NCBI GenBank assembly: GCA_947642445.1
Contig: CANRSF010000003.1
Coordinates: 62,001-126,000, forward strand
Origin: an uncultured Collinsella sp.
Lineage (GTDB): Bacteria; Actinomycetota; Coriobacteriia; Coriobacteriales; Coriobacteriaceae
Length of the DNA: 64,000 nucleotides
Direction: 5' to 3'
Both the position numbers and the translations under genes were made by a program. The notes beneath the pieces were generated by a model. It was not told the origin of the DNA, did not search any database, and saw only the letters and a list, made by a program, of their open reading frames with translations. This document shows positions 24,226-58,956 of this stretch, one piece after another (positions within the stretch are counted from its first letter, which is position 1; the number at the start of each line of letters is the position of its first letter).

Positions 24226-24446
24226 GTGATTCGCTCGAAAACTGGGATATCGGATAGGGGGATTTGGTCCGATTCCCTTCCGTTTGCTTTTCAAAAACGA
24301 GCGTTTTGGCCTGCGTGCCGGCGATATCTCGTACATGCGACAGATGTGATTTTCATACAATGGGCGCAGCAAAACGCAAGGTAAAACGCCTTGCGGACAC
24401 GTACGCCCGATGTCCAGATGCGGGCGATGGAGAGGAGCAAACGCTC

Positions 24447-25304
24447 ATGGCACTTGTTACCACCGAAAAGATGCTCAAGGACGCTCAGGCCGGCCACTAC
24501 GCCGTCGGCGCGTTCAACGTCGAGAACCTCGAGTTTGTTATGGCCGTTCTGGCCGCTGCCGAGGAGACCAAGTCCCCCGTCATCATGCAGACCACCCCGG
24601 GCACCATCAAGACCGCTGGTCTGGACTACTTCTACGGCATGGTCAAGGCTGCCGCCGAGCGCACTTCCGTGCCCGTCGCTCTGCACCTCGATCACGGCGA
24701 TGGCTATGACCGCTGCATGCAGGCTTTCCGCACGGGCTACACCTCCGTCATGATCGACGGCTCGCACGAGTCCTTCGAGGACAACATCGCCCTGACCAAG
24801 TCCGTCGCCGACGCTGGCCGCGCCATGGGCGTGCCCGTTGAGGCCGAGCTTGGTAAGGTTGGCGGCAAAGAGGACGACGGTCCCGCGGTTGAGGGCGAGA
24901 GCCCCTACACCGATCCTGCCGAGGCCAAGGAGTTTGTTGAGCGTACCGGCTGCACCTCCCTCGCAATTGGCGTTGGCACCAGCCACGGTGTGTACACGAG
25001 CGATCCGCACATCGAGCAGTCCGTGGTCAAGGCCATCCGCGACGCCGTCGACGTGCCGCTGGTTCTGCACGGCACCTCCGGTGTGCCCGATGAGCAGGTT
25101 GCCGAGGCTGTGAAGAACGGCATCTGCAAGGTTAACTACGCCACCGAGCTGCGTCAGGCCTACACCAAGGGCTTCATGGCCTACATGGCCGAGAACCCCG
25201 CCTGCTTCGATCCCAAGAAGCCGGCCAAGGAGGGCATGCGCGAGATCACCGAGCTGGTTAAGATCCGCATGACCAACCTCAACTCTGTGGGCAAAGCAGA
25301 GTAA
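24447..25304 (+). CDS. class II fructose/tagatose-bisphosphate aldolase
   Basis: A 285-residue zinc aldolase splitting fructose- or tagatose-1,6-bisphosphate to dihydroxyacetone phosphate and glyceraldehyde-3-phosphate. Visible are HLDHGDGYD (catalytic Asp and zinc His), EAELGKVGGKEDD (zinc Glu), GVGTSHG (zinc His region) and LVLHGTSGVPDEQV. Length is that of the GatY/KbaY/short FbaA group. The ATG at 24447 follows GAGAGGAG; a longer frame upstream runs through the promoter and is rejected. With no lacD in the window, it is a good candidate for the last step of the tagatose route. It may equally be the glycolytic enzyme. Confidence 0.9.
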   Translation: MALVTTEKMLKDAQAGHYAVGAFNVENLEFVMAVLAAAEETKSPVIMQTTPGTIKTAGLDYFYGMVKAAAERTSVPVALHLDHGDGYDRCMQAFRTGYTSVMIDGSHESFEDNIALTKSVADAGRAMGVPVEAELGKVGGKEDDGPAVEGESPYTDPAEAKEFVERTGCTSLAIGVGTSHGVYTSDPHIEQSVVKAIRDAVDVPLVLHGTSGVPDEQVAEAVKNGICKVNYATELRQAYTKGFMAYMAENPACFDPKKPAKEGMREITELVKIRMTNLNSVGKAE

Positions 25305-25337: not shown

Positions 25338-25462
25338 GGGAGGGATGAGGGCTTAGTTCCCCAATCGTCCTCGGGCATGCAAAAAGCCTCGCTGCGCACT
25401 TCGTGCGGCGAGGCTTTTTGCCCCCTGCGGAAAGATTGGGGAACTAAGCCCTCATCCCTCCC
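25338..25462. ncRNA. 125-nt perfect hairpin with conserved core, copy 1
   Basis: Arms 25338-25365 and 25435-25462 are perfectly complementary over 28 bp. The core (25366-25434) contains a second stem, AAAAAGCCTCGC...GCGAGGCTTTTT, with a GCGCACTTCGTGC cap. The core is shared with 58567-58635, whereas the arms are unrelated in sequence. It follows the aldolase gene and may act as a terminator, but its size and two-part conservation are unusual. Not a known RNA family to my recognition. Confidence 0.7.
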
Positions 25463-48486: not shown

Positions 48487-48500
48487 CCTGTTGGCCTTTT

Positions 48501-48748
48501 CCAGGCCCTGTGGGCAAAAAATGGCAAATATGAGTACTGTTGCTATCGTAGTGTCATATTGCCGGCATAAGATAATAGACATAACAGAAAATATGTTCAT
48601 TAACCTTAACACATATAAGCCCGCTATAGAACTATTTGAGTAATTTAGGGGCGCTTGCAAGCCGTGCGGGCAGCATATGGGGCTGTTTTGGCTGTTACTA
48701 AAAAGGTAACAGTACTCATATTTGCCATTTTTTGCCCACAGGGGCTGG
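48501..48748. mobile_element. 248-bp MITE-like element with 41-bp inverted ends
   Basis: The left arm 48501-48541 (starts CCAGGCCCTGTGGGCAAAAA) and right arm 48708-48748 are inverted repeats with one mismatch. The 166-bp interior is AT-rich and has no convincing gene. This size and structure suit a non-autonomous transposon; no transposase is in the window. Confidence 0.7.
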
Positions 48749-48802
48749 AAAGGACCGTCAATTCGGCTCCAGGGGATGCGGCCCAAGGGCCGCAGAACGA
48801 AA

Positions 48803-56124: not shown

Positions 56125-58176
<2,052 letters not shown>

Positions 58177-58261: not shown

Positions 58262-58513
58262 ATGAAGGTTTCTGAAGTTTCCGAGACTCAGGCCGATAAC
58301 CTGGTCCACATGCTCGACGCTTACGCCGAGAAGGGTGGCCACCACCTGAACATCAACGTCTTCAACCGTGAGACGCTGCTCGACGCTCAGGCTCACCCCG
58401 AGAAGTACCCGCAGCTGACCATCCGCGTTTCCGGCTATGCCGTGAACTTCCACACGCTCACCAAGGAGCAGCAGGATGAGGTCATTTCGCGTACCTTCCA
58501 CAACAAGTTCTAA
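58262..58513 (+). CDS. grcA: separate glycyl-radical subunit of pyruvate formate-lyase (GrcA-like)
   Basis: An 83-residue protein equal to the C-terminal domain of Pfl[35 protein letters not shown] and [13 protein letters not shown]. The radical-bearing residue is predicted to be Gly58. In E. coli the similar GrcA/YfiD is a spare part for oxygen-cleaved PFL. Here the neighbouring PflB has no such domain, so this protein must supply the radical in every active complex. GAAGGAG precedes the ATG. PflA, the activase, is encoded 1.5 kb downstream. Confidence 0.92.
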
Positions 58514-58536
58514 AGGGATTTAACTCCCGCAGGATC

Positions 58537-58665
58537 GCCGGGGCTGTTTGGGCTATCTCCCAAAACGTCCTCGGACATGCAAGAAGCCCTCGCTGCGCAC
58601 TTCGTGCGGCGAGGGCTTCTTGCGTCCTGCGGAAAGTTTTGGGAGGTAGCCCAAACAGCCCCGGC
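58537..58665. ncRNA. 129-nt hairpin with conserved core, copy 2
   Basis: Arms 58537-58566 and 58636-58665 pair over 30 positions with one T/C difference that still allows a G-U pair. The core (58567-58635) closely matches 25366-25434, including a compensated change in its inner stem (AGAAGCCCTCGC with GCGAGGGCTTCT). Arms differ entirely from copy 1. Lies right after grcA. Confidence 0.7.
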
Positions 58666-58956
58666 GGGGTCCTGTGTAGTCACCCTTTAGGCGGAACTCT
58701 CCTAATAGATTGATCGTTCGGGATTCTTTCTTGGTTGCGCTACCGTTCATCGCGTATAGCTACCGTTTGCGGAGTAAGTAACACTTAGCAATAAACCGTG
58801 TAGAATCTCAGTTAAGCACGGAGTTTTCCAGGGAGACGCTGTCCTTTGTTATGTGCAAAGGGCGGCGTCTCTTTGGCGCTTGGACGCCGTTGTGCAACAG
58901 TGCGCCGGGCGTGTGTCATGTAGTGAAAAGCCAACGTCGAGATGGTCGTGATAAGA

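What the first reader, a model, noticed from the sequence alone, without database searches (positions are those of the whole stretch)
58537..58665. Second copy of the covarying hairpin, directly after the split pfl genes
The 30-bp arms (with one G-U wobble) differ entirely from copy 1, but the core is conserved. Both copies follow highly expressed central-carbon genes, so a common 3'-end function such as termination, RNA stability or a released small RNA is possible.
Basis: partly seen in the sequence, partly recalled or inferred. Interest (0 to 1): 0.65.

Follow-up and report, generated by a model that had tools for sequence, protein, structure and literature searches.

The report
Conserved hairpin after housekeeping gene stops
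Gut bacteria of the Collinsella group carry a large RNA-like hairpin just behind the stop codons of housekeeping genes; its central loop is conserved across bacterial families while the two arms of its stem change quickly but mostly in matching pairs, so it is a new candidate 3'-end element and a natural case for studying how perfect hairpins are kept.

Summary
The hairpin is real: window 58536-58666, two 30-bp arms with one T.G, fold z -18. It is one of at least 15 copies in this Collinsella genome. It belongs to a wider family in the Collinsella family and some related families (71 of 396 Coriobacteriia genomes), with no Rfam 15 match. The invariant part is an internal loop, CGTCCTCG opposite TGCGGAAtG; outer and inner stems differ freely. 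Copies sit in sense, about 30-80 nt (stop to core) behind stop codons: 114 of 149 copies follow a same-strand gene, only 4 of 149 meet an opposite-strand gene end. The same hosts recur across genera (groEL, fba, PFOR, thrB, pta). Stem mismatches show no G.U excess (21 G.T, 19 A.C in 2470 pairs), and arms diverge as fast as flanking DNA but mostly in paired steps (weaker). I read this as an mRNA 3'-end element (end formation and protection) whose stems are kept matched by DNA template switching. Function is inferred; no expression data were available. An IS110-family element inserts in the core.

The parts
56125..58176 (+). pyruvate formate-lyase body lacking the glycyl-radical domain (683 aa)
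   Evidence: NCBIfam TIGR01255, positions 1-665 of 744
58262..58513 (+). GrcA3-type glycyl-radical cofactor (83 aa); host gene of copy 2
   Evidence: NF038360 above cut-off, PF01228
58514..58535 (+). spacer between stop codon and stem; holds the degenerate 5' flank motif (CTCCCGC here; CTCCCACC-like in many copies)
58536..58565 (+). outer stem, 5' arm (30 bp, one T.G)
58566..58579 (+). conserved core, 5' side CGTCCTCGGACATG
   Evidence: invariant in alignment A2 except column 32
58580..58622 (+). inner hairpin (variable module; identical to the inner hairpin of the PEP carboxylase copy)
58623..58636 (+). conserved core, 3' side CGTCCTGCGGAAAG; the homologous IS110-family insertion point in relatives lies between 58629 and 58630
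58637..58666 (+). outer stem, 3' arm
24264..25304 (+). class II fructose-bisphosphate aldolase, host gene of copy 1 (stop 33 nt before the arm)
25338..25365 (+). copy 1 outer stem, 5' arm (28 bp, perfect)
25366..25434 (+). copy 1 core and inner hairpin
25435..25462 (+). copy 1 outer stem, 3' arm

Best explanation
The hairpin is a member of an ancient structured 3'-UTR element of the Collinsella family and some related families. It is transcribed as the last part of the mRNA of a set of housekeeping genes, folds as one long rod right behind the stop codon, and serves as the protected 3' end of that mRNA: it helps to end transcription and/or blocks 3'-5' exonucleases. The conserved internal loop (CGUCCUCG opposite UGCGGAANG) is the recognition site of a so far unknown protein. 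The stems only need to be stems; their sequence drifts at about the neutral rate and is re-matched at the DNA level by template switching between the arms during replication, which gives paired, Watson-Crick-only changes. Shown here: structure, invariant core, sense placement behind stop codons, recurring host genes, paired drift without G.U excess. Inferred: that it is transcribed, that it ends or protects the mRNA, that a protein binds the loop, and that template switching is the re-matching process.
For: Placement: 114 of 149 distinct copies lie 5-110 nt behind a same-strand gene, 4 of 149 before an opposite-strand gene end; stop-to-core distance 30-82 nt, median about 46, in 66 of 72 copies of the short-inner type. 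Host genes recur across genera and families: groEL in six genomes (own, G029, G040, G137, G173, G361), fba, PFOR, thrB, pta, purL. Core invariant in 13 of 13 and 14 of 14 aligned copies; 34 of 50 pairs change on both sides, covariation score 0.697 against 0.212 shuffled and at most 0.167 slid; second alignment 0.493 against 0.147 shuffled and at most 0.176 slid. A model built without any long-inner copy finds the window copy at E 1.8e-5. At the pfl locus 6 of 8 parsed species without the element have an ordinary hairpin-plus-T-run terminator at that place. Mismatches 21 G.T, 19 A.C, 26 others in 2470 pairs. Template switching that creates and repairs stems is described in PMC8794818 (abstract and passages).
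Against: No expression data: transcription is not shown. There is no U-run directly behind most long-inner copies, so a classic intrinsic terminator is not met, and by a loose test 47 of 92 copies have some hairpin-plus-T-run within 200 nt downstream, which could do the terminating. Two sites (G000 C29 minus copy and C22, with their orthologues; 16 of 108 copies) are not behind a sense gene. The paired share falls to 424 of 753 in a looser set of pairs, and the 463 pairs are not independent; exchange of whole alleles by recombination would look alike. Equal G.T and A.C also fits a DNA-only element.
Confidence: 0.5

Rival explanations
1. It is chiefly a DNA element: a REP- or MITE-like palindrome that spread behind genes and acts, if at all, as a DNA structure or protein site (cruciform, gyrase or insertion target).
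For: Pairing is Watson-Crick only, no G.U excess; an IS110-family element uses the core as target, as known ISs use REPs (PMC1525189, abstract); inner hairpins are shared between sites within a genome.
Against: Strict sense orientation behind stop codons; same host genes across genera with unrelated arms, which fits vertical descent, not spread; few copies per genome; no such hairpin within 450 bp of RAYT-like genes in 20 regions from 14 genomes.
Confidence: 0.2
2. It is an elaborate intrinsic terminator; the core loop has no partner and only shapes the hairpin.
For: It stands where other species have an ordinary terminator; several copies end in T-rich sequence, e.g. L309 of G016; some inner hairpins have A-tract/T-tract flanks, e.g. 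25399-25413.
Against: An invariant asymmetric loop kept across families is not needed for intrinsic termination; most copies lack a U-run directly after the stem.
Confidence: 0.17
3. The long double strand is cut (for example by RNase III) and releases a stable small RNA or sets the 3' end.
For: A stem of 28-30 bp plus an inner stem of about 19 bp is a plausible substrate of a double-strand nuclease (sequence; the biology is recalled).
Against: Arm and inner sequences are not conserved, so a base-pairing small RNA with kept targets is unlikely.
Confidence: 0.08

Closest known systems
REP / BIME (repetitive extragenic palindromes)
   Same: extragenic palindromes behind genes, targets of insertion sequences (PMC1525189 abstract)
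   Different: REPs have conserved stem sequence, high copy number and RAYT linkage (recalled; start of abstract of PMC2817692); here arms are free, 15 copies were found, and no RAYT link was seen
Rho-independent (intrinsic) terminators
   Same: GC-rich hairpin behind the stop codon, at the place of an ordinary terminator in other species
   Different: much longer stem, invariant internal loop, mostly no U-run directly behind the stem
Collinsella-1 RNA (RF01700)
   Same: structured-RNA candidate of the same genus (PMC2864571, passage)
   Different: the 22 listed RF01700 places (29 genomes searched) coincide with none of the listed places of models R1 and R2
Stems kept by template switching (PMC8794818)
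   Same: multi-base compensatory changes, perfect stems
   Different: there 78.5% of two-step compensatory changes involved G-U or U-G pairs (passage); here G.T is 21 of 66 standing mismatches; the two counts are not the same quantity

Membership tests
REP element | conserved stem sequence shared by copies | tested here: not met
   outer arms differ between sites; the first 22 outer-stem pairs of A2 all vary
REP element | linked RAYT gene flanked by the element | tested here: not met
   20 regions around Y1_Tnp genes, no core hairpin in the flanks
REP element | extragenic palindrome targeted by IS110-type elements | tested here: met
Rho-independent terminator | GC-rich hairpin directly followed by a U-run | tested here: not met
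   no U-run directly after 58666 nor behind most copies; exceptions exist (L309)
Rho-independent terminator | RNA polymerase releases there | not testable with these tools
   no expression data
Rfam families (release 15) | score above a family's gathering threshold | tested here: not met
   0 matches in the window; on 20 loci only an FMN riboswitch away from the element; sub-threshold hits are typical of any long hairpin
Collinsella-1 RNA RF01700 | match to its covariance model at the element | tested here: not met
   places differ from the listed R1/R2 places
integron attC site | cassette array with R-box ends (recalled) | tested here: not met
   copies lie singly behind scattered housekeeping genes; no integrase search was made

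The most novel reading that the evidence does not exclude
Bacteria of the Collinsella family and relatives mark the 3' ends of a fixed set of housekeeping mRNAs with a dedicated RNA module: an invariant internal loop read by an unknown protein, carried on stems whose sequence is free and is continually re-copied from arm to arm during replication. The element would be both a new post-transcriptional 3'-end system and a replication-level hairpin repair process visible in living populations.
Probability: 0.3. Interest if true: 0.75.

Novelty: new variant of a known kind. Interest (0 to 1): 0.6.

Why it matters
If true, a common gut genus and its relatives use a previously unnamed 3'-end element on groEL, glycolytic and fermentation genes, and its stems give a many-locus, many-species data set to measure how perfect hairpins are kept, a question usually discussed with rRNA. 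It also gives annotators a family to add (two covariance models were built) and explains a specific landing site of an IS110-family element.

Tried and rejected
REP/RAYT origin: Y1_Tnp is present in 37 of 43 genus genomes, and the 6 without it have no or only a weak hairpin match, but 20 regions around RAYT-like genes carry no such hairpin in the flanks; dropped. Rfam families: none. Mobile core inserted into old terminators: rejected, because outer stems have near-constant length (27-28 bp in 78 of 108 copies) and mostly no T-run behind. Window terminator scan: no more sites than in shuffles (20 against 18.8), so it decided nothing. First drift count (326 pairs, 424 paired, 329 unpaired) used ungapped flanks and kept mismatch-rich elements (at least 18 of 26 pairs); the second aligned the flanks, required at least 22 of 26 pairs, and dropped pairs with gene divergence above 0.15 or 3' flank divergence above 0.35. 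Both are reported; the second favours my reading. Literature: searches gave no description of this element; the supplementary tables of PMC8040213 (3161 candidates, 250 palindromic; passages) could not be read, so it may be listed there unnamed.

Full report
Observation. The fold is far beyond chance (z -18.2). Copy 1 lies at 25338-25462. Copy 2 follows GrcA3 of a split pyruvate formate-lyase, copy 1 a class II fructose-bisphosphate aldolase. The arms of the two copies are not wholly unrelated (13 of 28 equal, shuffled mean 7.1).

Copies. A covariance model of 13 copies (R1) finds 13 places in the own genome (19 rows, 6 of them the other strand of the same place). A second model (R2), built from 14 copies of other species and genera with a tiny inner hairpin, adds 2 more, so at least 15 in all. 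R1 matches 34 of 43 genus genomes, of which 22 have 8 or more rows (both strands counted) and the rest 0-4. R2 matches 71 of 396 Coriobacteriia genomes, 13 of 153 genera, mostly in the window's own family f1 and some in f2; the tool scored at most 13 candidates per genome there, so copy numbers are lower bounds. The exact core pattern is in 63 of 396 genomes, some of them matches without a stem; the backward control pattern was present in about 11 (my count from the table). R2 finds the window copy independently at E 1.8e-5.

Anatomy. From 5' to 3': a degenerate flank (CTCCCACC-like), outer stem (27-28 bp in 78 of 108 copies), CGTCCTCG, inner hairpin, TGCGGAA(A/T)G, outer stem, and a flank resembling TGCGTTAAC. 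Three inner types occur: GGACATG...CGTCC-like (98 of 108), a longer type with a TGCTCC...GGAGC-like end (9 of the other 10; the tenth is L160), and the tiny type, common outside the aerofaciens group. In the tiny type many copies have a second internal loop (AC or TC opposite TTA, TCA or TC) about 5 bp below the core. At one site the inner hairpin can be of different kinds in different species (sites 2, 9 and 10), and the pfl inner hairpin of the own genome is identical to that of the PEP carboxylase copy.

Placement. In one search, 90 of 108 copies have a same-strand ORF of at least 50 codons ending close before the arm (one of the 90, L073, has only a doubtful 72-codon ORF). The 18 without are 16 copies from two sites (C29 minus, C22 and orthologues) and L080 and L106. 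In one search, 66 of 72 copies of the short-inner type have a same-strand ORF of at least 100 codons, stop to core 30-82 nt. Over both (genes of at least 100 codons with GC3 of at least 0.7): 149 copies, 114 behind a same-strand gene, 4 before an opposite-strand gene end (3 of them both), 34 neither. Hosts named by NCBIfam: PFOR, fba, OppF, GroEL, PEP carboxylase, PfkA, heavy-metal ATPase, Pta, ThrB, an esterase-like protein, LarD, IlvE, Asd, lactaldehyde reductase, GrcA3, and in other genomes PurL, alcohol dehydrogenase, PFOR, GroEL, flavorubredoxin-like, acyl-CoA ligase, fba, GlpK, rubrerythrin, ThrB, Pta, Xaa-Pro dipeptidase-like, GroEL; 2 of 20 proteins had no hit. I chose those 20 from the 66. 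That these genes are highly expressed is recalled knowledge, not a result.

At the pfl site the element-bearing group has it (four genomes carry a second, tiny-type copy in tandem, two carry an IS110-family insertion, one is broken at a contig end, one was not parsed), while in 6 of 8 parsed distant species a hairpin with T-run stands within about 55 nt of the stop.

Drift. In A2, 34 of 50 pairs show changes on both sides, with no one-side (G.U) change in the 22 variable outer-stem pairs. Across 95 distinct elements and 26 outer pairs each, 2404 of 2470 pairs are Watson-Crick; the 66 others are 21 G.T, 19 A.C, 26 other; 55 of 95 elements have no mismatch. In 463 ortholog pairs the arms differ by 16.2%, the 3' flank by 11.7%; 1726 of 2138 pair differences keep Watson-Crick pairing, 908 of transition and 818 of other type. 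A looser set gave 424 of 753. The pairs overlap in sequence and are not independent. I read this as pairing that is restored on the DNA, most simply by template switching (PMC8794818; abstract and passages seen). Selection on the RNA for single pairs would favour G.U over A.C, which is not seen; but one mismatch in a long stem may be invisible to selection, so this says how the stem is kept, not whether the RNA is the working form.

Insertion element. A 462-aa transposase with PF01548 and PF02371 (IS110 type) sits in the core at the pfl site of G026, and its left end at that of G009, where the contig ends. Left junctions were seen in seven genomes, six at the same point (...TG/AC-GCTCC) and one (L232, near a contig end) elsewhere in the inner stem; right junctions all read TGCGGA, one of them (L230) without a recognisable arm behind. 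Bridge-RNA-guided targeting of this family is known (PMC11208160; search listing with the start of the abstract); the guide of this element was not examined.

Mechanism. The sense placement, narrow range of distance to the stop codon and recurring hosts argue for a role in the mRNA; the place of an ordinary terminator at pfl argues for 3'-end formation or protection; the invariant asymmetric loop argues for a protein partner. Only structure, placement and evolution are shown; the rest is inferred. Not tested: expression, termination, half-life, binding.

Noticed in passing
L227:4101-5486 (G026) and junctions in L176, L177, L233, L234, L256, L257: IS110-family element whose insertions lie in the hairpin core at TG/CGGA; its target choice could be read from its bridge RNA.
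   Followed up: partly
L180, L183, L185, L186 (pfl site): A second, tiny-type hairpin stands in front of a copy that has lost its 5' arm exactly at the core boundary.
   Followed up: partly
L127 (G000:C29) and L052: Two copies face each other about 300 bp apart; the second is not behind a sense gene.
   Followed up: no
window 48493-48756: Inverted repeat with 60-nt arms, 87% complementary, 144 nt apart, not the same element.
   Followed up: no
window 58831-58875: A GAGACGC...GCGTCTC hairpin followed by TTTGG about 165 nt behind the element, before the next gene.
   Followed up: no
L128:1936-2128: FMN riboswitch behind the groEL copy.
   Followed up: no
L340 (G313): Two tiny-type copies in tandem 66 bp apart, in a genome with nine exact core matches.
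   Followed up: no
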